A DNA stretch of 40,321 nucleotides from Acidobacteriaceae bacterium (lineage in GTDB: Bacteria; Acidobacteriota; Terriglobia; Terriglobales; Acidobacteriaceae), in contig PLIO01000070.1 of NCBI GenBank assembly GCA_003140075.1, forward strand, positions 37,040 through 77,360. Reading direction: 5' to 3'. The notes under the pieces were generated by a model. It saw only the letters and a program-made list of their open reading frames with translations, had not been told where the DNA came from and made no database searches. Positions 17,003 to 34,764 of this stretch are shown piece after piece; the stretch's first letter is position 1; each line of letters begins with the position of its first letter. Position numbers and translations under genes: made by a program.

Positions 17003-17070
17003 TCGACAACGAACAGACTTGTGATTTGAATTTTGGGGTCACCCTGAGAAGTGACTTAGAGGGCGAAGCT

Positions 17071-17622
17071 ATGGCCGTAGGCAGTGCATGGGCGATTCCC
17101 GAAACGGTTCGATTGGCCGTACCGGAAACAGAAAACTGGTATGCGCTACAGACCCGCTCCCGCCACGAAAAAATTGTGGTGCAGCGGCTGGAAGAGAGAG
17201 GCGTGACCACCTTTCTGCCGGTGGTCACCGAGGTGCACCGCTGGAGTGACCGCAAGAAGTCGGTGCAGATGCCGCTGTTTCATTGTTACGTGTTCGCGAA
17301 ATTTGCGCCGAACCGGGAGGAACGCCTGCGCGTTCTCCGCGTGGATGGAGTATTCGGCCTGGTCGGGGGCAGAGGCGAGGGCGCGCCCATTCCGGACGAG
17401 CAAATCGCTGCGGTGCGCAGTCTGGTGGGAGGGCAACTACCCTGGTCGGTGCATCCCTTTCTCAAGCTTGGGCAGCGAGTGCGGATTCGCAGCGGAGCGC
17501 TCGATGGCATGGAAGGCATACTGGTGTCGCGCAACGGCGACCGCAGCCTGGTCATTTCCGTGGATGCAATCCAGCGTTCGCTGGCGGTTCGTGTGGAAGG
17601 ATACGAAGTCGAAGCGGTCTGA
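17071..17622 (+). CDS. NusG-family transcription antiterminator (RfaH/UpxY-like paralogue)
   Basis: The 183-residue protein has a NusG N-terminal domain (about 21-118) starting ENWYALQTRSRHEKIVVQRL, with LPVV, PLFHCYVFAK and DGVFGLVG. A KOW domain follows (about 128-183) with GQRVRIRSGALDGMEGILV. It lacks the features of housekeeping NusG at the start, and its position at the head of an exopolysaccharide operon fits specialised paralogues such as RfaH, UpxY and LoaP, which keep RNA polymerase going through long polysaccharide operons. ATG 17071 has GAGGG eight bases upstream; a TTG extension to 17026 is unlikely. A long leader with tandem promoters precedes it. The response-regulator gene follows after 48 nt. 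Confidence 0.9.
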   Translation: MAVGSAWAIPETVRLAVPETENWYALQTRSRHEKIVVQRLEERGVTTFLPVVTEVHRWSDRKKSVQMPLFHCYVFAKFAPNREERLRVLRVDGVFGLVGGRGEGAPIPDEQIAAVRSLVGGQLPWSVHPFLKLGQRVRIRSGALDGMEGILVSRNGDRSLVISVDAIQRSLAVRVEGYEVEAV

Positions 17623-24882: not shown

Positions 24883-25005
24883 GCGATGGCACGCAAGGCG
24901 CCATGAAGCCTTGTGGCTCAGTATCTCCCCCGGACAAACAAACCCAGCTGTTGGCTGATTCAGTGGCAATTATTTCTGAAGCAGGCGAACAGGCGGAGGA
25001 AATCC

Positions 25006-25530
25006 ATGAACGTACGGCGCTCCAATACGAGTCCACACTTGAGTCCGCGTCCGGCCAAAGCGGTATCGGCAGCGAGCGGCACTACTTTGCAAGAGGAGGA
25101 TTTTCTCCGGGTGATCTGGCACGAGAGAAAGCGGGCGGAACGCTCCCAGAAGCCCTGCCTTCTGATGCTGATCGAGATGGAAACCCAGTTTCCCTTCGAG
25201 CAGAGGGGCGAGCCGCTGCGGAAGATATTGTCCACCCTGGCCGCGACCACCCGAGAGACGGATGTGACCGGCTGGTACAAGGACGACAGCGTGATCGGCG
25301 TGATGTTCACGGAAATCACCGTCGAGGATGGAAGTTCGGTGGTGACGACCGTGATGAGCCGGGTGAGCGAAGCCCTGCGCAGCCGCCTGAGTGCGCAGCA
25401 ATTCAACCAGGTGAGCATCTGCTTCCATCTCTTTCCGGAGGAACGCGACGAGCGGATGGCGGCGACGCCGGGCAATCCGCCTCTGTATCAGGATCTGGCA
25501 ACGCGCGACGAGGCCGGGAGGCTGGTGTAA
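25006..25530 (+). CDS. Stand-alone degenerate GGDEF-like domain protein
   Basis: ATG 25006 with GGAGGA seven bases upstream gives 174 residues. The fold pattern matches GGDEF domains (HERKRAERSQKPCLLMLIEME, TRETDVTGWYKDDSVIGVMF, VMSRVSEALRSRL), but the catalytic GGDEF position reads YKDDS, so it should not make cyclic di-GMP. The same domain occurs as the N-terminal part of the sugar transferase at 28547-29683, where the shared stretch TRETDVTGWYK is identical and similarity continues over about 130 residues. It may act as a partner or ligand sensor of that enzyme; this is inference. The ATP-grasp gene starts 2 nt after its stop. Confidence 0.82.
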   Translation: MNVRRSNTSPHLSPRPAKAVSAASGTTLQEEDFLRVIWHERKRAERSQKPCLLMLIEMETQFPFEQRGEPLRKILSTLAATTRETDVTGWYKDDSVIGVMFTEITVEDGSSVVTTVMSRVSEALRSRLSAQQFNQVSICFHLFPEERDERMAATPGNPPLYQDLATRDEAGRLV

Positions 25531-25532
25531 GA

Positions 25533-26768
25533 GTGAAGCCCACCGTCCTGATTGCGACGACGTCGCGCTGGTTCCCGACGGCCCGCCTGGCCATGGCATT
25601 GGCCCACGCGGGGTGTACCGTGGACGCCGTCTGCCCGGCCCGCCATCCGCTGCGCAGGATGAGAGCAGTGCGCCGAACCCATGCCTACCGGGGCCTCATG
25701 CCGTTGCAGTCGTTTGCGCGCGCGGTGGCAGCAGCGCAGCCGGACTTCATTCTTCCCGGCGATGACCTTGCGACCACTCACTTGCACCAGCTCTACGATC
25801 AGGAGCGGCAACGGGGTGAGGCCGGGCGATCGACTTGCGCGCTGATCGAGCGCTCCCTGGGTGCGCCGGAAGGGTTCCCGGTGGTGTATTCGAGAACCGC
25901 TTTCATCGATCTGGCGCGGAAGGCGGGCATGCGGGCTCCCAGAACCGAAGTGATCGCGAACCTCAATGACCTCAGAAAATGGGTGGCCAAGGTGGGGCTT
26001 CCGACGGTGCTGAAGGCCAACGGCACCTCCGGCGGCAACGGCGTCCGGGTCGTTCATACTCTCGAAGAGGCCGAACATGCCTTTCGCGCCCTGCAGTCTC
26101 CTCCTCTTCTGGCCCGGGCAGTAAAGCGGGCTCTGGTCGATCAGGACAAGACGCTGGTCTGGTCCTCTCTGCTGCGCCGCCGATCGGTGGTGAACGCCCA
26201 GGAATTTGTGGCTGGCCGCGAAGCGACCAGTGCGGTCGCCTGCTGGCAGGGCAACGTTCTGGCGGGCCTGCATTTCGAAGTGATCCACAAGCGGGATGCG
26301 GCCGGGCCATCGAGCGTTCTGCGCCTGATCGAGAACGCGGAAATGTCCGCCGCCGCCGAGAAAATAGCCGGCCGGCTGCAACTTTGCGGGCTGCACGGTT
26401 TCGACTTCATGCTGGAGGCGCACAGCGGAAACGCGCACCTGATCGAAATCAATCCGCGCGCCACGCAAGTCGGACACCTCGCGCTGGGGCCCGGACGGGA
26501 CTTGCCTGCGGCTTTGTGTGCCGCGCTGTCGGGGGAACCCGTCCATGCGGCTTCGAAGGTGACCGAGAGCGACACCATCGCCCTGTTCCCCCAGGAGTGG
26601 ATGAGGGATCCGGCCAGTGAGTATCTGACCTCGGGCTATCACGATGTTCCCTGGGAGGAGCCGGAGCTGATTCGCGCCTGCGTGGGGAAACGCTGGAAGC
26701 AGAAGCTTCCCCATCCGAAAGAGAATCCGGCGCCGAGCCTGTCGCCGGTCCGCCTGCCCCGTCTATGA
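25533..26768 (+). CDS. ATP-grasp domain protein (carboxylate-amine/thiol ligase-like)
   Basis: GTG 25533 follows the previous stop by 2 nt, with GGGAGG about ten bases upstream, giving 411 residues. The N-terminal part (about 1-120) is a Rossmann-like pre-ATP-grasp region (VLIATTSRWFPTARLAMALAHAG, DFILPGDDLATTHLHQLYD). The central ATP-grasp fold has LPTVLKANGTSGGNGVRVV and the metal-binding LIEINPRATQVGHLALG near 305-320. Such enzymes join a carboxylate to an amine or other nucleophile through an acyl phosphate. The substrate is unknown; polysaccharide or amino-acid modification is suggested by the neighbours (aspartate kinase next, FemAB-like downstream). The stop overlaps the aspartate kinase start (ATGA). 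Confidence 0.85.
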   Translation: MKPTVLIATTSRWFPTARLAMALAHAGCTVDAVCPARHPLRRMRAVRRTHAYRGLMPLQSFARAVAAAQPDFILPGDDLATTHLHQLYDQERQRGEAGRSTCALIERSLGAPEGFPVVYSRTAFIDLARKAGMRAPRTEVIANLNDLRKWVAKVGLPTVLKANGTSGGNGVRVVHTLEEAEHAFRALQSPPLLARAVKRALVDQDKTLVWSSLLRRRSVVNAQEFVAGREATSAVACWQGNVLAGLHFEVIHKRDAAGPSSVLRLIENAEMSAAAEKIAGRLQLCGLHGFDFMLEAHSGNAHLIEINPRATQVGHLALGPGRDLPAALCAALSGEPVHAASKVTESDTIALFPQEWMRDPASEYLTSGYHDVPWEEPELIRACVGKRWKQKLPHPKENPAPSLSPVRLPRL

Positions 26769-28396
26769 AAACTTCCGCCCATCATCGTCCGGCGCGCAGC
26801 GGCTTTCAAAGCCGGCATTTCCTGCAGCATCCTGCAGGGCCGGATCAGGAGCGTGCGCAAGAACAGGAAGAAGTTCGCCGCTCCCTGCGGAAGCCGATTC
26901 GGATCCTGAAATTTGGCGGGACATCAGTAGGCGACGCCGCGGCGATCGGCAAGGTGGTGGAAATTATCCGGGATGCAGTGCGGCAGAGTCACGTGGTCGC
27001 GGTGGTCTCCGCAATGAGCGGCGTGACCAACCAACTGGTTGCAGCCGCCAATCAAGCCGAGGCAGGCGACTACCAGACAGTGACGGCGATTCTCGGAGAA
27101 CTGCGCCAGCGGCACACCGCAGCGGCCAGTTCATTGATCCATTCGACAGCGGAGCGGAGCGCGATCGACCGGAAGGTGACGAGTTTGTTGCAGGAAGCCG
27201 ACCGCCTGTGCCAGGGTACGATGCTGCTTGGCGAGTTGACCCCGCGGGCGCGCGATGCCATATCGAGCCTGGGTGAGCGCCTGTCTGCGCCTCTGGTCGC
27301 CGCGGCGCTGGCCGAAGGCGGAGTGGCCAGTGCGGCGATCGAAGCCACGCAACTGGTCGTCACTGACTCCTGCCACGGTGCCGCCGACCCGCTGATGGAT
27401 TTGACGCGGGAGCGCTGCCATACCGGGCTGCAGCCACTTTTGGAACAGGGCATGGTCCCGGTGGTGACCGGCTTCATCGGCGCCACGCCGGAAGGCGTAC
27501 TCACCACTCTCGGCCGCGGCGGCTCGGATTATTCCGCGACCATCCTGGGAGCGGCGCTGCACGCGGACGAGGTTATCATCTGGACGGATGTGGACGGTCT
27601 GCAAACCGCCGACCCGCGCTTGGTGCCCGGGGGACGCACGATCCCGGAAATTTCCTATCGCGAGGCGGCCGAACTGGCCTACTTCGGCGCCAAGGTTCTG
27701 CATCCGAAGACTCTGCGTGCGGTCATGGCGCTCGGAATTCCGCTCTGGATTCGCAACACCTTCGCTCCGGAACGGCCGGGAACGAAGATCACGCCCGCAG
27801 GCCCCCCGAGCGTTGCCGCAGTGAAGGCGCTCACCGCCAGCAGCGACGTGGCCTTGATCCAGGTTGGCGGTCCGGGCCTGGCCGAGGTACAAGACGTTCT
27901 GGGGCGCACGTTCCGCACCGCCGCGGCGGTGCGAGCCGATGTGCTGCTGATCTCGCAAGCCTCGTCGCAGAACGACCTGTGCCTGGTGATTTCATCCGCA
28001 CTCGGCAAGTGCCTGGTCGAAGCGCTGTGGCATGAGTTTGCGCATGACCTGGCGCATGCATCCACCAACCACATCACCCTCGACGCGACGGTGGCGATGG
28101 TTACGCTCGTCGGTCAAAACATGAAATCTGTTCCCGGAATGGTCGGCCGTGCGTTCGGAGCGCTGGGCCGGGAAAACGTGAACATCGTTGCGATCGCACA
28201 GGGCTCCTCGGAGTGCACCCTCTCGTTCGTGGTAGCGAAAAAAGACGTGAACGTGGCGCTGGCCAGCATCCATCAGGAATTCCGGCTGGGGAACCCCTTA
28301 AGCATGGCGACGGCCGCAACCACGGGCGAGCGGGAGAACTACTATCCGCCGCGCCCGCCGATGGAGACCAGCTTCCATCCCAATCAGGAACAGTAG
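26765..28396 (+). CDS. lysC: Aspartate kinase (ThrA/LysC-like, ACT domains) inside the exopolysaccharide operon
   Basis: The 543-residue protein phosphorylates the beta-carboxylate of aspartate, the first step to lysine, threonine, methionine and diaminopimelate. It shows KFGGTSVG (49-56), GRGGSDYSATILGAAL, IWTDVDGLQTADPR and LAYFGAKVLHPKT of the kinase domain, and tandem ACT regulatory domains with VGQNMKSVPGMVGRAFGALG near the C-terminus. It resembles the kinase half of ThrA but has no homoserine dehydrogenase part. The first 45 residues are a His/Gln/Arg-rich extension without family counterpart; no other start codon lies between ATG 26765 and the kinase motif, and the ATGA overlap with the ATP-grasp gene supports it. 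An amino-acid biosynthetic enzyme here is unexpected: it may supply aspartyl phosphate or a derived amino acid for polymer decoration, or simply be a displaced copy. Confidence 0.92.
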   Translation: MKTSAHHRPARSGFQSRHFLQHPAGPDQERAQEQEEVRRSLRKPIRILKFGGTSVGDAAAIGKVVEIIRDAVRQSHVVAVVSAMSGVTNQLVAAANQAEAGDYQTVTAILGELRQRHTAAASSLIHSTAERSAIDRKVTSLLQEADRLCQGTMLLGELTPRARDAISSLGERLSAPLVAAALAEGGVASAAIEATQLVVTDSCHGAADPLMDLTRERCHTGLQPLLEQGMVPVVTGFIGATPEGVLTTLGRGGSDYSATILGAALHADEVIIWTDVDGLQTADPRLVPGGRTIPEISYREAAELAYFGAKVLHPKTLRAVMALGIPLWIRNTFAPERPGTKITPAGPPSVAAVKALTASSDVALIQVGGPGLAEVQDVLGRTFRTAAAVRADVLLISQASSQNDLCLVISSALGKCLVEALWHEFAHDLAHASTNHITLDATVAMVTLVGQNMKSVPGMVGRAFGALGRENVNIVAIAQGSSECTLSFVVAKKDVNVALASIHQEFRLGNPLSMATAATTGERENYYPPRPPMETSFHPNQEQ

Positions 28397-28546
28397 ACCG
28401 ACCCACGGGCAGCCGAAACCCAACCCAGCGAAAATAATCCTCTCCCTGCAGATTTTCAGAAACCACCCTGCCCAAATGTCCAAGCTACCTGCTCGACCAT
28501 TCGCTGCTTCATCGGACAAAGTGGAGCAGCGCCAGGGAGACAAGTT

Positions 28547-29683
28547 GTGAAGTTAAATCGATCCCATGCGTCTGTGGCTTCGCCACAGCTTCGGTCTACA
28601 CCGGCTCAAACCTTCAGCGTCCTGAGTGAAGAGTCCTTTCATCGCATGATTGCGCTCGAGAGAAAACGAACCGAGCGCTCGGGGCAACCCTTTCTGCTGA
28701 TGCTGCTGGACGCGGGAAACTGCCTGCCTTCCGACAAAACCGGAAAGGTGCTGGCCCGCATCCTTGCTGCCCTGTCGTTGTCGACGCGCGAGACCGATGT
28801 GACGGGTTGGTACAAGGAGCATTCCGTCGTGGGAGTCATGTTCACCGACATCAGCGCCGAAGACCGGGAATCGATTGTGGGCACGATGATGAGCCGGGTG
28901 AGCGAGACCCTGCGCAACAATTTGAGCCTGGAGAAATTCAGCCAGGTCAGCATTTCGATGCACGTTTTCCCGGAGGCCTGGGATCAGGAGAGCACCCACG
29001 GCAACCCGACTCTCTATCCCGACTTTGTAAACCGCCACCGGACGCAGAAGTTCGGCCGCATGGCCAAGCGCGGCATGGACATCGCGGGCAGCGCGGCTGC
29101 GCTGGTCCTGTTATCTCCCGTTTTTCTGGTGGTCGCGGTGCTGGTCAAGCTAAGTTCCGAGGGGCCGGTTCTGTTCCGGCAGGAGCGGCTTGGGCAATTC
29201 GGCGAGCCCTTCACGTTCCTCAAATTCCGCTCGATGTATGCCAATAACGACCGCAAAATCCATCAGGAGTTCATGAAGCGGGTCATCAAAGGCGATCACG
29301 ACGGCCGGGCGGAGGGAGGGAACAAGTCGGTGTACAAGATGACCAACGACCCGCGCATCACCAAGATCGGATCGATTCTGCGCCGCACCAGCCTGGACGA
29401 ACTGCCGCAATTTATCAACGTGTTGCGGGGGGAAATGTCGCTGGTGGGGCCGCGACCGCCGATCGCCTACGAATGCCATGAATATGACATCTGGCATCGC
29501 CGCCGGGTGCTCGAAGTCAAGCCGGGAATCACCGGCCTGTGGCAGGTCCGGGGACGGAGCCGGGTGCGCTTTGACGACATGGTGCGTCTGGATCTGCAGT
29601 ACGTGCGTACCTGGTCGCTGTGGCTGGACGTGCAAATCCTGGCGCAGACGCCCAGAGCCTTATTTAGCGATGACGCCTTTTAG
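28547..29683 (+). CDS. Undecaprenyl-phosphate sugar transferase with N-terminal degenerate GGDEF-like domain
   Basis: GTG 28547 with AGGGAGA upstream gives 378 residues. The N-terminal roughly 160 residues repeat the degenerate GGDEF-like domain of the small protein encoded at 25006-25530 (ERKRTERSGQP, TRETDVTGWYKEHSVVGVMF). The C-terminal part (about 165-378) is a bacterial sugar transferase: one membrane helix (AALVLLSPVFLVVAVLVKL), then GPVLFRQERLG, FLKFRSMY, LRRTSLDELPQFINVLRGEMSLVGPRPP and KPGITGLWQVRGR. It should start each repeat unit by moving a sugar-1-phosphate onto undecaprenyl phosphate. The usual membrane N-terminus of WbaP-like initiators is replaced by the GGDEF-like domain, which may confer control by a nucleotide or by the small homologue. 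Confidence 0.92.
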   Translation: MKLNRSHASVASPQLRSTPAQTFSVLSEESFHRMIALERKRTERSGQPFLLMLLDAGNCLPSDKTGKVLARILAALSLSTRETDVTGWYKEHSVVGVMFTDISAEDRESIVGTMMSRVSETLRNNLSLEKFSQVSISMHVFPEAWDQESTHGNPTLYPDFVNRHRTQKFGRMAKRGMDIAGSAAALVLLSPVFLVVAVLVKLSSEGPVLFRQERLGQFGEPFTFLKFRSMYANNDRKIHQEFMKRVIKGDHDGRAEGGNKSVYKMTNDPRITKIGSILRRTSLDELPQFINVLRGEMSLVGPRPPIAYECHEYDIWHRRRVLEVKPGITGLWQVRGRSRVRFDDMVRLDLQYVRTWSLWLDVQILAQTPRALFSDDAF

Positions 29684-29727
29684 TCTCGGGATGTTTCCCG
29701 CCAGTGAGGTGGGCACCATTTACCCCC

Positions 29728-29748
29728 ACGATCAGCTCGGTTGATCGT
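29728..29748. other. Short hairpin between sugar transferase and FemAB-like genes
   Basis: ACGATCA-GCTCGGT-TGATCGT is a 7-bp perfect stem with a 7-nt loop, 45 nt after the sugar-transferase stop. There is no T-tract; a processing or partial termination role is possible. Confidence 0.35.
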
Positions 29749-29786
29749 CGCACCCTATGCGTTTGTAGTTTGAGGAGAAGAATACC

Positions 29787-30908
29787 CTGACCGCGACCTC
29801 TGTAGTTGAGTGCCGGAGCCGTGCCGAACAGACACTATCGATTGTTGAGCCCAAGGCAGCCTATTGCATCGAGCCCTTGAGTGACCGTCGCTGGGAGGAA
29901 TTTGTGGGGAGACATCCCCGGGCCTCCGTGTTTCACTCTTCGGCATGGCTGCAGGCGCTTTCCCGCACCTACGGATACCAGCCGATCGTGTATACGACGT
30001 CTCCGTCCGGCCAGGAACTGCGCAACGGCATGGTGTTTTGCCGAGTGGAGAGCTGGCTCACCGGGCGGCGGCTGGTTTCGCTGCCCTTCTCGGATCACTG
30101 CGAGCCTCTGGTAGACACGGCAGACGCACTGGACGCCATGGCGTCCGCTCTGGAGCAGGAATGCCGTGGCAGGCAATGGCGTTATGTAGAAGTCCGGCCT
30201 CTGCAGCGGTTCGAAATGGCGACTTCCCTGGCGCATGCCACCGTACCCTACACTTTTCATCAGCTTGATCTCCGGCCGGACCTCAATGTGCTGTTTGGCA
30301 ACTGCCACAAGAATTCGACCCAGAGGAAAATTCTCCGGGCGGAGCGCGAAGGTCTGCAGTATCGCGAAGGAGCCACGGAAGAGTTGCTGGATGCCTTTTA
30401 CCGGCTGCATACCATCACCCGGCAACGGCACCAGCGTCCGCCCCAGCCCCGCAAATGGTTTGTCAATTTGCGGGAGAGCTTTGGGGATGCGCTCAAGATT
30501 CGGGTGGCGTTCCAGGGCGAGCGGCCGGTAGCGGCCGTGCTGACCATCCGCCACAAGGATACTCTGGTGTATAAGTACGGCGGCAGCGACTCCCGCTTCA
30601 ACAATCTCGGCGGCATGCATTTCCTGCTCTGGCGAGCGATCCAGGAGGGAAAAGCAGCGGGGCTGCATTTCTTCGACTTTGGGCGGACCGAAGCCGCTCA
30701 GCATGGGCTCATCACCTTCAAGAAACGATGGGGCACCACGCAGTCCAGTCTCACTTATTTCAGGTACGGCCTTTCGGACGACATCAGCCACATGTTCGAG
30801 GCGTCCGGTGCAAGCTGGAAATCCAGAGTGGCGAAGTACTTGCTCGCCCACATGCAGCCTCGCGTTCTTTCTTTCGCGGGCCGGGTTCTGTACCGGCACG
30901 TGGGATAG
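29787..30908 (+). CDS. FemAB-like GNAT acyltransferase, PEP-CTERM/XrtA-system type
   Basis: The protein has a FemAB-like double-GNAT layout: RRWEEFVGRHPRASVFHSSAW near the N-terminus, QRKILRAEREGLQY, the RQRHQRPPQP segment, VAAVLTIRHKDTLVYKYGGS, and LHFFDFGRTEAAQHGLITFKKRWG near the C-terminus. Homologues add amino acids from aminoacyl-tRNA to cell-wall peptides; in PEP-CTERM loci the acceptor is not known. The frame has no ATG or GTG at its start. A CTG at 29787 follows GAGGAGAAG at the right distance and keeps the first beta-strand (AAYCIEPL), giving 373 residues. The TTG at 29877 would cut that strand and has no ribosome site. I therefore favour CTG, though automatic callers would use TTG (343 residues). 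Confidence 0.85.
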   Translation: MTATSVVECRSRAEQTLSIVEPKAAYCIEPLSDRRWEEFVGRHPRASVFHSSAWLQALSRTYGYQPIVYTTSPSGQELRNGMVFCRVESWLTGRRLVSLPFSDHCEPLVDTADALDAMASALEQECRGRQWRYVEVRPLQRFEMATSLAHATVPYTFHQLDLRPDLNVLFGNCHKNSTQRKILRAEREGLQYREGATEELLDAFYRLHTITRQRHQRPPQPRKWFVNLRESFGDALKIRVAFQGERPVAAVLTIRHKDTLVYKYGGSDSRFNNLGGMHFLLWRAIQEGKAAGLHFFDFGRTEAAQHGLITFKKRWGTTQSSLTYFRYGLSDDISHMFEASGASWKSRVAKYLLAHMQPRVLSFAGRVLYRHVG

Positions 30909-32089: not shown

Positions 32090-33955
32090 ATGTACGAAAC
32101 AGAAGCCAACTCCAGCGTTGAGAGCCCGGCCCAATTTCCGGCCGAGGTGATGCGTTCGTTCGATCAGCTCCGAGGACGGATCGCATCCCGCACCGTGCTG
32201 CCCTGGAGCGAGCACTGCACGGAGTGCGTTTGGCCCACCTGCTATACCACCTGCGATCTGTACAGCCCGCGGCAGGATGGAAGATGCCGCCGCTTTGCCG
32301 ACGGCATGGTGCGGATCGACTCGCCCTCGGCCGCGAACTCTTATCTTCTGAAGATCCGCTTCAAACGCTGGGGAAAATTGTGGACTCCGGGCAACGTCCG
32401 CCTGCATCCGGCGGAGCAGGCGGAAAAGCTCGAACGCCGCGACTACCGGATCGGAAACGCCCTGCGGCGGTTCCCTCTGCCCACGCTGGTCAAGATCACG
32501 GTCACGACCAAGCGCTACGGCTTCAAGAAAAGAATTGCCAGTCCGGCGACCGACGGCGGCGAACTCCCGACCTGTTTCCTGGTGGAATGCTACAACCCGG
32601 AGGCGCACAACGTCCGGCTGTCGCTGACCATGCGTGCGGCCGATGAGCGCTCCAACATGCCGTTCCAGAAGCTGATCGAGCTGACCCCGGGCTTTCACCG
32701 CATCCGGGTTCCGCTCGAGGAAATCGCCGCGCTGGTCGATCTTCGGCATCCGTTTGGCATCGACCTGATCCCCAACGACGAGGCGGAGGAGACAACGCTG
32801 TACTTTGGCCTGATGGAGTTTGTGATCGAGTTAGCGGAAGCTCAGAAAACGGGCACGAATGGCGGGGCGGGCAAGAGTGGTAAGACTGGCAAAACCAAGG
32901 CCGACGGAAAGATCAAATGCATCGTCTGGGACCTCGACAACACGCTGTGGGAAGGTGTGCTGATCGAGGACGGAGCGGAGCGTCTGCGCCTGAAGCCAGG
33001 CGTGGCCTCGATCATTCAGCAACTCGACCAGCGCGGCATTCTGCACTCGATCGCCAGCAAGAACAATTCCGAAGACGCGCTCCAGGCGCTCAACAAATTT
33101 CAGTTGGAGCAATACTTCCTGTGTCCACAAATCTCCTGGAAGCCGAAAAGCGAGGGTATCAAAACCATCGCCCAGCAATTGAACATCGGCCGCGACAGCC
33201 TGCTGTTTATCGACGACTCCGAATTTGAACTGGGAGAAGTCAAGTCGGTCTGCCCCGAAGTGCGGGTGCTGAACGCGGATCAATACCTGACGCTCGCAGA
33301 AAGGGACGAATGCCAAGTCCCGGTGACCGCCGAAAGCCGGGAACGGCGCCGGCTGTATCAAGTCGAGGCCAGCCGGCAGACGGTGGCCCAGAGTTTCAGC
33401 CACGACTATATGGCATTTCTCCGGCACTGCGAGATTCAGCTGACGGTCCGGCCCATGAGCGAAGAGAATCTGGAGCGCGTCCACGAACTGACCCAGCGTA
33501 CCAACCAGATGAATTTCTCCGGCAACCGTTACGACCGCGAAGTGCTGCGCCAGCTGCTGGCAAACCTCGACCTGGATACGTTTGTACTGAGTTGCGAAGA
33601 CCGGTTTGGCAGCTATGGGGTGATCGGCTTTTCCATCGTGGATCGGCGCGAACCCCGCATGACCGACCTGATGTTCAGCTGCCGCATTCAATCGAAGCGC
33701 GTGGAACACGCGTTTCTGTCGTCCGTGATGCAAAGGTATGTCGCGGAGACGGGAAAAGATTTCTACGCCAACTACCGCAAGACTCCGCGCAACGCCCCCT
33801 CGGGACAGGTGTTTGCCGACCTCGGGATGGAGGAGATCGAGACGCGGGATGGAGTTTTATCCCTCCGGTTCCCGAAAGAAAGAGAAGTCCCGGACGACGG
33901 CGTGATTCAGGTCGTGGTGCAGGACACACAAGAAGCCATGGTGACGCCGGCGTGA
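32090..33955 (+). CDS. FkbH-like HAD-IIIC phosphatase/acyltransferase with N-terminal Cys cluster and beta-sandwich
   Basis: The 621-residue protein has an N-terminal Cys cluster (C43, C46, C51, C55, C66) that could bind zinc or an Fe-S centre, then a beta-rich domain (about 85-250; FLVECYNPEAHNV, GFHRIRVPLEEI). A Gly/Lys/Thr-rich linker (255-274) leads to the HAD-IIIC core with VWDLDNTLWEGV (nucleophile D281) and SLLFIDDSEFEL. The C-terminal FkbH-type GNAT-like domain carries NQMNFSGNRYDREVLRQLL and YGVIGFSIVDR. FkbH proteins make glyceryl-carrier protein from 1,3-bisphosphoglycerate; no carrier protein gene is visible here, so the role is probably modification of a sugar with an acyl or glyceryl group. 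The stop overlaps the deacetylase start (GTGA). Confidence 0.88.
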   Translation: MYETEANSSVESPAQFPAEVMRSFDQLRGRIASRTVLPWSEHCTECVWPTCYTTCDLYSPRQDGRCRRFADGMVRIDSPSAANSYLLKIRFKRWGKLWTPGNVRLHPAEQAEKLERRDYRIGNALRRFPLPTLVKITVTTKRYGFKKRIASPATDGGELPTCFLVECYNPEAHNVRLSLTMRAADERSNMPFQKLIELTPGFHRIRVPLEEIAALVDLRHPFGIDLIPNDEAEETTLYFGLMEFVIELAEAQKTGTNGGAGKSGKTGKTKADGKIKCIVWDLDNTLWEGVLIEDGAERLRLKPGVASIIQQLDQRGILHSIASKNNSEDALQALNKFQLEQYFLCPQISWKPKSEGIKTIAQQLNIGRDSLLFIDDSEFELGEVKSVCPEVRVLNADQYLTLAERDECQVPVTAESRERRRLYQVEASRQTVAQSFSHDYMAFLRHCEIQLTVRPMSEENLERVHELTQRTNQMNFSGNRYDREVLRQLLANLDLDTFVLSCEDRFGSYGVIGFSIVDRREPRMTDLMFSCRIQSKRVEHAFLSSVMQRYVAETGKDFYANYRKTPRNAPSGQVFADLGMEEIETRDGVLSLRFPKEREVPDDGVIQVVVQDTQEAMVTPA

Positions 33956-34764
33956 GTATCCGCTCTGGACTCGGTGCGGCGCGCCGCCGCGTGCTCGGTT
34001 CGCTATATCGGCGCAATGTTGCTCTGGGAAGCTGCGGGCCCATCGTGTCGTTCAGCTTCGACGATTTTCCCCGCACCGCTTATTCCGCCGGTGGCGCGAT
34101 CCTCGAGGGTTTCGGAGTGCGAGGAACCTACTACACCGCCTGCGGGCTGCGGAACACCGCCAATGAACTCGGGGAGCAGTTCCGCTCCGAGGACATCGAT
34201 TCGCTGCTCGAAAAAGGACATGAGTTGGCCAGCCACACCTTCCAACACGTTTCCAGCCGCTCGGTTTCCACGGCTGAGTTTTGCGACGATGTGGAGCGCG
34301 GGAGCGCGGCCATTGCACAGTTGACCGGAGTGGAGTCTACGAATTTCGCGTACCCCTTCGGTGACGTTACGCTCGCGGCCAAGCGCACCCTGGGCCGCGG
34401 CCTGACCAGCGCGAGAAGTATTTTCCCCGGTCTTAACGGGCCCGACATTGACCTCAACCTGCTGCGGGCGAACAGCCTGTACGGCGGCCTCGATCGGCTC
34501 AGGCAGGTGGAAGAACTCATCCGGAAAAATACCGAGCGCAAGAGCTGGTTGATTTTCTACACCCACGATGTGCGCCCGGCGCCTTCGCCGTTTGGCTGCA
34601 CTCCGGCGCTGTTTGAAGCGGCGGTGTCATGCTCGGTGCGAAGCGGCGGCCGCATTCTGACCGTGCGGGATGCGCTGGCGAAAATCGGAATTCACGAAGT
34701 GAATCGGAAGGGGCAGGTCAGGGGGCAGGCCAAGGATCAGGCCAAGATGTGCGTTCCCGCATGA
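33952..34764 (+). CDS. Polysaccharide deacetylase (NodB/CE4 family)
   Basis: GTG 33952 overlaps the FkbH-like stop in GTGA, giving 270 residues. The NodB motifs are IVSFSFDDFPRTAY (catalytic and metal-binding Asp37-Asp38) and GHELASHTFQHVS (metal ligands His95 and His99). NFAYPFGD and WLIFYTHDV follow. The enzyme should remove N- or O-acetyl groups from a polysaccharide. No signal peptide is seen, so it may act on lipid-linked intermediates inside the cell or be exported in an unusual way. It belongs to the same coupled gene string as its neighbours. Confidence 0.9.
   Translation: MSIRSGLGAARRRVLGSLYRRNVALGSCGPIVSFSFDDFPRTAYSAGGAILEGFGVRGTYYTACGLRNTANELGEQFRSEDIDSLLEKGHELASHTFQHVSSRSVSTAEFCDDVERGSAAIAQLTGVESTNFAYPFGDVTLAAKRTLGRGLTSARSIFPGLNGPDIDLNLLRANSLYGGLDRLRQVEELIRKNTERKSWLIFYTHDVRPAPSPFGCTPALFEAAVSCSVRSGGRILTVRDALAKIGIHEVNRKGQVRGQAKDQAKMCVPA

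What the first reader, a model, noticed from the sequence alone, without database searches (positions are those of the whole stretch)
25533..30908. Possible amino-acid decoration module: ATP-grasp, aspartate kinase and FemAB-like transferase
An ATP-grasp ligase overlaps an aspartate kinase gene (ATGA), and a FemAB-like protein follows two genes later, all inside an exopolysaccharide operon. Aspartate kinase is normally a housekeeping biosynthetic enzyme; coupling to an ATP-grasp ligase suggests supply and attachment of aspartate or a derived amino acid to the polymer. This is the best candidate for an undescribed system here.
Basis: inference. Interest (0 to 1): 0.7.

Follow-up and report, generated by a model that had tools for sequence, protein, structure and literature searches.

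The report
Aspartate-pathway module in slime-polymer locus
Some uncultured soil acidobacteria carry, inside the genes that build their outer sugar coat, a spare copy of the enzyme that starts lysine, threonine and methionine synthesis, paired with an amino-acid-joining type of enzyme and often travelling with homoserine-using genes, which points to a dedicated supply line for an unknown amino-acid-based coat part or small molecule.

Summary
An ATP-grasp ligase (25533-26768) overlaps a complete aspartate kinase (AK, 26765-28396) by ATGA, with a FemAB-like gene two genes on, in an exopolysaccharide (EPS) operon. The AK is the only one in the assembly, but contigs break exactly where relative G015 keeps a lysine-sensitive lysC (asd-lysC-dapB-dapA-dapD), so this is most likely an assembly gap. 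The window AK belongs to another AK lineage. In 17 of 62 public ATP-grasp loci an AK lies directly downstream, and all 17 genomes have a further AK match (some partial). In one species the AK is fused to the EPS phosphoglycosyltransferase. The ATP-grasp gene co-occurs with an N-hydroxylase-fold flavoenzyme and, in 8 of 13 same-genus genomes, with O-acylhomoserine enzymes; in the window's own genome these lie about 18 kb downstream, with an AMP-ligase, carrier-thioesterase and exosortase beyond. Best reading: a pathway-dedicated aspartokinase, like Ask_Ect (ectoine) or FUB3 (fusaric acid), feeding a homoserine-family amino acid that the ATP-grasp enzyme ligates. Whether the product decorates the polymer or is a free metabolite is undecided.

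The parts
25533..26768 (+). ATP-grasp carboxylate-amine ligase (411 aa)
   Evidence: PF02786, PF02222 and PF02655 over Pfam cut-offs; K161, G168, G170 and E305-x-N307-x-R309 invariant in all 18 aligned sequences; AlphaFold model pLDDT 87.6; Foldseek hits the biotin carboxylase/PurK/PurT fold
26765..28396 (+). pathway-linked aspartate kinase with ACT domains (543 aa)
   Evidence: PF00696, ACT_9 and TIGR00657 over cut-off; K49, S82, T88, E171, R251, D255 unchanged in every linked row that covers them (the catalytic role of these positions is recalled); own clade apart from generic AKs of the genus
26765..26768 (+). ATGA stop/start overlap of ATP-grasp and AK
   Evidence: CTATGAAAAC; the same overlap is possible in L133, L134, L135, L141, L144, L148, L154
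28547..29683 (+). polyprenyl-phosphate sugar-phosphate transferase with an unassigned N-terminal domain; fused to AK in L055/L136
   Evidence: PF02397 226 bits; TIGR03025 295.7 against cut-off 295.55; fusion
29877..30908 (+). FemAB-like aminoacyl/acyl transferase
   Evidence: PF13480 and PF02388 over cut-off; TIGR03019 122 bits, below cut-off 260
33952..34764 (+). polysaccharide deacetylase; start not settled
   Evidence: PF01522 52.5/23.1 on the longer frame 33310-34764
24913..25530 (+). stand-alone 205-aa relative of the N-terminal part of the 28547-29683 protein, just before the ATP-grasp start
   Evidence: no Pfam match at E 0.1; similarity seen by eye in the translations

Best explanation
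The AK is a pathway-dedicated accessory aspartokinase. It makes beta-aspartyl phosphate outside the control of the lysine-sensitive housekeeping enzyme (inferred). Housekeeping Asd and homoserine dehydrogenase carry the flux to homoserine (inferred; one relative has an asd next to the AK). The linked MetA and MetY convert homoserine to an O-acylhomoserine and then to a gamma-substituted amino acid (inferred from families). An N-hydroxylase-fold flavoenzyme and a carrier/AMP-ligase set may tailor it (inferred). The ATP-grasp partner, whose gene overlaps that of the AK, ligates the resulting amino acid to an amine or carboxylate acceptor (fold and conserved residues shown, substrate inferred). 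Because the set sits in an EPS locus with an exosortase and a FemAB-like transferase, the acceptor is most simply a sugar or lipid-linked sugar of that locus (weakest step).
For: ATP-grasp/AK adjacency in 17 of 62 loci, with a further AK match, some partial, in 17 of 17 of those genomes. Linked AKs form one clade (80/100) far from the genus's generic AKs. AK site residues unchanged. In 37 same-genus genomes: ATP-grasp and FAD enzyme 13 both/0/2/22 (Fisher p 3e-8); linked-type AK with ATP-grasp 10/3/0/24 (p 8e-7); linked-type AK with close MetY 7/3/2/25 (p 3e-4). FAD enzyme, MetY and MetA lie on the window's own contig at C95:83897-87629. Around the pair: AsnB, FAD enzyme and MetY in L145; AsnB, FAD enzyme, MetY, MetA and asd in L148; FAD enzyme, MetY and MetA in L154. 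In another family (f2) an AK lies near an FAD enzyme, in G047 with MetY, AsnB and carrier-thioesterase. AK-phosphoglycosyltransferase fusion in G012.
Against: 45 of the 62 ATP-grasp loci show no AK within the flanks held, and G027/L139 and L192 keep the ATP-grasp in an EPS locus without it, so the ligase does not need the AK. Close MetY is found in 8 of 13 ATP-grasp genomes of the genus. In the window's genome the FAD-MetY-MetA genes are about 18 kb from the AK with EPS genes between. MetY of L148's genome has one stop in the matched stretch. No homoserine dehydrogenase was noticed in the cluster (not searched by model), and asd in one locus only (one of six genomes). Two of the 17 linked AKs look partial or split. 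Fisher tests treat related genomes as independent and ignore assembly gaps. Nothing measures feedback control, substrate or polymer composition.
Confidence: 0.62

Rival explanations
1. The set makes a free specialised metabolite (an NRPS-like, homoserine-derived compound); the EPS genes are only neighbours in an accessory island, and nothing is attached to the polymer.
For: AMP-ligase, P450, ThDP enzyme, PP-binding-thioesterase, class IV aminotransferase and aldehyde dehydrogenase follow MetA on the window's contig. G047 has MetY, AsnB and carrier-thioesterase. L141 and L154 carry the pair without visible EPS genes. Fusaric acid clusters use AK + homoserine O-acetyltransferase + O-acetylhomoserine (thiol-)lyase (PMC6738028, passages).
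Against: The EPS tyrosine-kinase gene lies upstream on the same strand in 11 of the 17 AK-linked loci, and in 7 of them the AK is next to the phosphoglycosyltransferase gene; AK is fused to that enzyme in G012; in 5 loci the pair lies within amino-sugar genes.
Confidence: 0.4
2. The AK acts only with its ATP-grasp partner: it supplies beta-aspartyl phosphate, or phosphorylates another carboxylate, for direct transfer, without the homoserine branch.
For: Overlapping genes; MetA/MetY are within the flanks held in only 3 of the 17 AK-linked loci; ACT domain eroded in the L212 AK (ACT_9 15.1 against cut-off 27) and lower in the G012 fusion (44.7) than in the window (96).
Against: ATP-grasp enzymes make their own acyl phosphate (general knowledge); AK site residues unchanged; MetY is further along the ATP-grasp contig in G000, G001, G012, G015, G026 and G464.
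Confidence: 0.15
3. The window AK is simply this organism's housekeeping lysC, moved next to EPS genes.
For: Only AK found in G000 by PF00696, ACT_9 and AK protein searches.
Against: Contig C63 ends inside asd and C84 begins before dapB, leaving out exactly the lysC of the operon seen in G015; all nine other same-genus genomes with a linked-type AK also have a generic AK match (some partial); the window AK fails the AK3 model that this lysC passes (354 and 537 against cut-off 455).
Confidence: 0.06
4. Chance neighbourhood of a ligase and a duplicated AK, kept by shared descent.
For: The linked AKs are one clade, so the pairing may be a single event.
Against: Kept while the linked AKs diverged to 49-85% identity with the window's and the flanks changed; AK near the FAD enzyme in another family where this ATP-grasp was not found.
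Confidence: 0.08

Closest known systems
Ask_Ect, the aspartokinase of ectoine clusters (PMC5924519, passages read)
   Same: Extra aspartokinase in a gene cluster that drains the aspartate pathway; found in only part of the clusters (133 of 510 there).
   Different: The neighbours here are an ATP-grasp ligase, EPS genes and, further off, MetA/MetY; ectoine genes are not among those annotated (not searched for). Feedback properties unknown.
FUB3/FUB5/FUB7 of fusaric acid clusters (PMC6738028, passages read)
   Same: Aspartate kinase, homoserine O-acyltransferase and O-acetylhomoserine (thiol-)lyase with an NRPS-like enzyme.
   Different: Fungal, with a polyketide synthase; here bacterial, with ATP-grasp, an N-hydroxylase-fold enzyme and an EPS locus; MetA matches the O-succinyltransferase model.
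Wbp/Vim linking-sugar pathway (PMC7468200, passages read)
   Same: FemAB-like and deacetylase genes (VimA- and VimE-like in kind); WbpB-like genes with WbpD- and/or WbpE-like ones flank the pair in 5 loci; AsnB beside the pair in L145 and L148; exosortase on the window's contig.
   Different: Serine or glycine there; here a dedicated aspartate-family supply is proposed. The Wbp-like set is not in the window. The relatives reach general family models but not the specific ones (UDP-GlcNAc 3-dehydrogenase 172 against 450, NeuD 87 against 161; TIGR03108 359 and 364 against 817).
Ornithine/diamine N-hydroxylating monooxygenases (DesB, SidA, PvdA)
   Same: Predicted fold of the FAD partner (TM about 0.72 to DesB) and PF13434 over cut-off.
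   Different: About 13-17% identity in the top matches; by sequence profile the best matches are ferredoxin/thioredoxin reductases; substrate unknown.

Membership tests
Aspartate kinase | AA_kinase plus ACT domains over curated cut-offs, site residues kept | tested here: met
Housekeeping lysine-sensitive LysC (AK3) | passes NF006570 | tested here: not met
   354.2 against cut-off 455; lysC of relative G015 passes with 537.4
Housekeeping LysC | lies in the asd-lysC-dapB-dapA-dapD operon (as in G015) | tested here: not met
   window AK is in the EPS operon; the operon's own lysC site falls in the C63-C84 gap
Pathway-dedicated aspartokinase (Ask_Ect / FUB3 kind) | additional to a housekeeping AK | tested here: met
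   17 of 17 AK-linked public genomes and 9 of 9 other same-genus genomes with linked-type AK have a further AK match, some partial; the two sets overlap; in G000 itself the site is in a gap
Pathway-dedicated aspartokinase (Ask_Ect / FUB3 kind) | clustered with enzymes that use aspartate semialdehyde or homoserine | tested here: met
   MetA and MetY (L154, G000) and asd (L148) over model cut-offs; about 18 kb away in the window's own genome; close MetY in 8 of 13 ATP-grasp genomes
Pathway-dedicated aspartokinase (Ask_Ect / FUB3 kind) | relaxed feedback inhibition | not testable with these tools
   needs enzyme assays
ATP-grasp carboxylate-amine ligase | ATP-grasp domain, fold and conserved ATP/Mg-type residues | tested here: met
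ATP-grasp carboxylate-amine ligase | amino acid as a substrate | not testable with these tools
   no NCBIfam model reaches its cut-off among the 25 shown of 26; no close solved relative
FemAB, XrtA/PEP-CTERM type (TIGR03019) | score over curated cut-off | tested here: not met
   122 against 260.35; PF13480 and PF02388 are passed
Exosortase/PEP-CTERM EPS locus | exosortase gene on the locus | tested here: met
   L208:1597-2580 (C95:98597-99580, outside the window), PF09721 143.6 against 25.7; NCBIfam exosortase models below cut-off
Exosortase/PEP-CTERM EPS locus | PEP-CTERM-type substrate proteins | tested here: inconclusive
   a simple regex scan of the window, its three flanking loci and the fetched relatives gave one weak candidate, in L206, none in the window's genome; whole genome not scanned
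Wbp/Vim linking-sugar pathway | WbpB, WbpE, WbpD beside VimA/VimE-like genes | tested here: inconclusive
   WbpB-like gene next to the ATP-grasp in 6 of 62 loci, 5 of them with AK (a seventh match at 20% identity in L150 not counted); only weak 27% hits to the WbpD-like query in the G000 flank

The most novel reading that the evidence does not exclude
The locus makes the long-sought group to which an exosortase conjugates its proteins, as a sugar carrying a dedicated, non-protein, homoserine-family amino acid (perhaps N-hydroxylated): the AK and MetA/MetY make the amino acid, the ATP-grasp and FemAB-like enzymes mount it on the amino sugar, and the exosortase uses it as the acceptor.
Probability: 0.17. 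Interest if true: 0.88.

Novelty: new variant of a known kind. Interest (0 to 1): 0.6.

Why it matters
Dedicated aspartokinases are known from ectoine and fusaric acid clusters. I found no report of one wired to an ATP-grasp ligase in an exopolysaccharide/exosortase locus; the searches behind this statement are (open PMC papers only, listings and abstracts). If the product is mounted on a sugar, it gives a concrete chemical handle on what exosortases attach proteins to. If it is a free metabolite, it is an uncharacterised homoserine-based cluster in uncultured peat and soil acidobacteria.

Tried and rejected
Rejected: that the window AK is lysC (assembly gap). Rejected: that FemAB is a fixed part of the ATP-grasp/AK module. 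Considered: a rhizobitoxine-like pathway; none of the 11 papers listed held the word aspartokinase, not pursued. An ATP-grasp substrate could not be read from sequence or fold. The PEP-CTERM regex scan found nothing in the window or its flanks. A term search in Haft 2006 (PMC1569441) gave no passages. The long-branch AKs of family f2 (L212, L220) cannot be placed safely in the tree, so an independent recruitment of AK there is not claimed; the L213 AK was dropped from the tree because its matched piece (296 aa) was under 300. Counts and 37/40/48 overlap: most same-genus genomes with the ATP-grasp appear again among the 62 public loci under other handles.

Full report
Setting. The window is contig C95:37040-77360 of a 5.77-Mb, 276-contig genome. 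The named relatives with the closest ATP-grasp genes are peat and soil Acidobacteriaceae / Candidatus Sulfotelmatobacter-type metagenome genomes (taxonomy). The operon runs from a NusG-type gene (17026), through an export protein (TIGR03027-like, below cut-off), a weakly Wzz-like protein and a tyrosine kinase (TIGR01007 over cut-off), to the ATP-grasp, AK, phosphoglycosyltransferase, FemAB-like, GT2, FkbH, deacetylase and GT4 genes.

The observation. The ATP-grasp and AK genes are as described. The ATP-grasp frame is open further upstream (to 24468), but close homologues start at 25533. The two genes overlap in CTATGA. The same overlap is possible in L133, L134, L135, L141, L144, L148 and L154.

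Is it the housekeeping AK? PF00696, ACT_9 and AK-protein searches of the assembly find one AK only; the other PF00696 matches are of other sizes, one lying between genes that look like tsf and frr and so probably pyrH (by eye). In relative G015, however, a lysine-sensitive lysC sits in asd-lysC-dapB-dapA-dapD, each gene passing at least one specific model. In the window's genome C63 ends inside asd and C84 starts just before dapB, so lysC is most likely missing through a contig break. The nine other same-genus genomes with a linked-type AK (53-81% identity to the window's) all also have a generic AK match, and all 17 public genomes in which AK adjoins the ATP-grasp gene have a further AK match (several are partial).

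Family tree. In a 76-row tree the 19 linked-type rows (the window, the 17 AK-linked loci, and L062 of G016, which lies on another contig than its ATP-grasp) form one clade, support 80/100, beside AKs of other acidobacterial families (G055, G135, G145) and far from the generic AKs of the same genus. This suggests acquisition from outside the genus or an old paralogue (inference). Site residues are unchanged in every row that covers them.

Pairing. A pattern-based scan of one genome per species with the ATP-grasp alignment gave 62 loci. AK is directly downstream in 17, all among the 27 with at least 58% ATP-grasp identity and none among the 35 others (the cut was chosen after seeing the data). 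So AK looks like a lineage-specific addition to an older ATP-grasp family. It can be absent: G027/L139 and L192 keep the ATP-grasp in an EPS locus without AK. In L138 and L141 the AK is split or partial. In G012 (L055 = L136) AK and the phosphoglycosyltransferase are one 876-aa reading frame.

The wider set. In 23 of 62 loci an FAD enzyme lies near the ATP-grasp gene. Its predicted fold matches N-hydroxylating monooxygenases best over full length (DesB, putrescine N-hydroxylase, DfoA, SidA; TM about 0.7, about 13-17% identity in the top matches). By sequence profile the strongest matches are ferredoxin and thioredoxin reductases over part of the protein, so its function is not settled. Beside the pair: AsnB, FAD enzyme and MetY in L145; AsnB, FAD enzyme, MetY, MetA and asd in L148 (MetY there with one stop in the matched stretch); FAD enzyme, MetY and MetA in L154. 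In the window's own genome FAD enzyme, MetY and MetA lie at C95:83897-87629, about 18 kb beyond the AK, followed by AMP-ligase, short-chain dehydrogenase, P450, UDP-GlcNAc 2-epimerase, ThDP enzyme, carrier-thioesterase, class IV aminotransferase, aldehyde dehydrogenase and an exosortase. In G001, G012, G015 and G026 the FAD enzyme is likewise on the ATP-grasp contig, 20-23 kb from it, with MetY next to it. Close MetY is an accessory gene: 9 of 37 same-genus genomes have it.

Co-occurrence in 37 same-genus genomes (from; G011 with a 44% ATP-grasp and G031 with a 39% FAD enzyme counted as positive): ATP-grasp with FAD enzyme 13 both, 0 and 2 alone, 22 neither (p 3e-8); linked-type AK with ATP-grasp 10 both, 3 ATP-grasp alone, 0 AK alone, 24 neither (p 8e-7); MetY with ATP-grasp 8/5/1/23 (p 3e-4); linked-type AK with MetY 7/3/2/25 (p 3e-4). 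These p-values ignore relatedness and incomplete assemblies.

Another family of the order (f2). In G039, G045 and G047 an AK lies near an FAD enzyme; G047 (L213) has MetY, AsnB and carrier-thioesterase by models over cut-off, with MetA- and AMP-ligase-like frames recognised by eye. The L212 AK is highly diverged with an eroded ACT domain, and its place in the tree is unsure.

Meaning. Two known cases work alike: Ask_Ect of ectoine clusters (PMC5924519, passages) and FUB3/5/7 of fusaric acid (PMC6738028, passages). The EPS side resembles the Wbp/Vim linking-sugar pathway, whose authors note that VimA matches TIGR03019 and speculate that exosortases use an amino-acid-modified sugar (PMC7468200, passages). 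In L137, L142, L143, L156 and L159 the pair has a WbpB-like gene upstream and WbpD-like and/or WbpE-like genes downstream (no WbpD-like hit in L142; L156 and L159 end early); L192 has that gene set with the ATP-grasp alone. Shown: the pairing, the distinct AK lineage, intact site residues, the co-distribution. Inferred: relaxed feedback, homoserine branch, ligase substrate, polymer attachment.

Noticed in passing
window 17026-17622: A NusG-type gene (PF02357) heads the EPS operon and is seen at that place in L053-L057 too, like specialised NusG factors of long operons (recalled).
   Followed up: partly
window 24913-25530 and 28547-29050: Two copies of a domain without Pfam match, one alone and one at the N-terminus of the phosphoglycosyltransferase; by eye it recalls a degenerate GGDEF-like domain (not tested).
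   Followed up: partly
L055:6565-9195 (= L136): Single reading frame joining aspartate kinase and the EPS phosphoglycosyltransferase in G012.
   Followed up: yes
L163, L164, L166, L176, L177, L182, L183, L188, L194 and others: The ATP-grasp gene with the N-hydroxylase-fold FAD enzyme, without AK in view, in acidobacteria and also in proteobacterial and verrucomicrobial records: a wider two-gene set.
   Followed up: partly
L074 (G012) and L076 (G011): A second, diverged generic-type AK in two genomes, apart from both the main generic AKs and the linked AK in the tree.
   Followed up: no
L200:8574-11554 and beyond (G472:C257): The other AK of G472 (59% identity to the window's) lies close to a frame that by eye starts like homoserine kinase, hinting that this AK type may serve threonine synthesis in related families.
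   Followed up: no
L215:11836-19901 (G031): A very long open frame, over 2,600 aa, beside a FAD enzyme and a second ATP-grasp type; its start recalls a polyketide synthase (not scanned).
   Followed up: no
L144, L147, L151, L152, L158: A second ATP-grasp type (weakly PRK06849-like in L144) near a FAD enzyme.
   Followed up: partly
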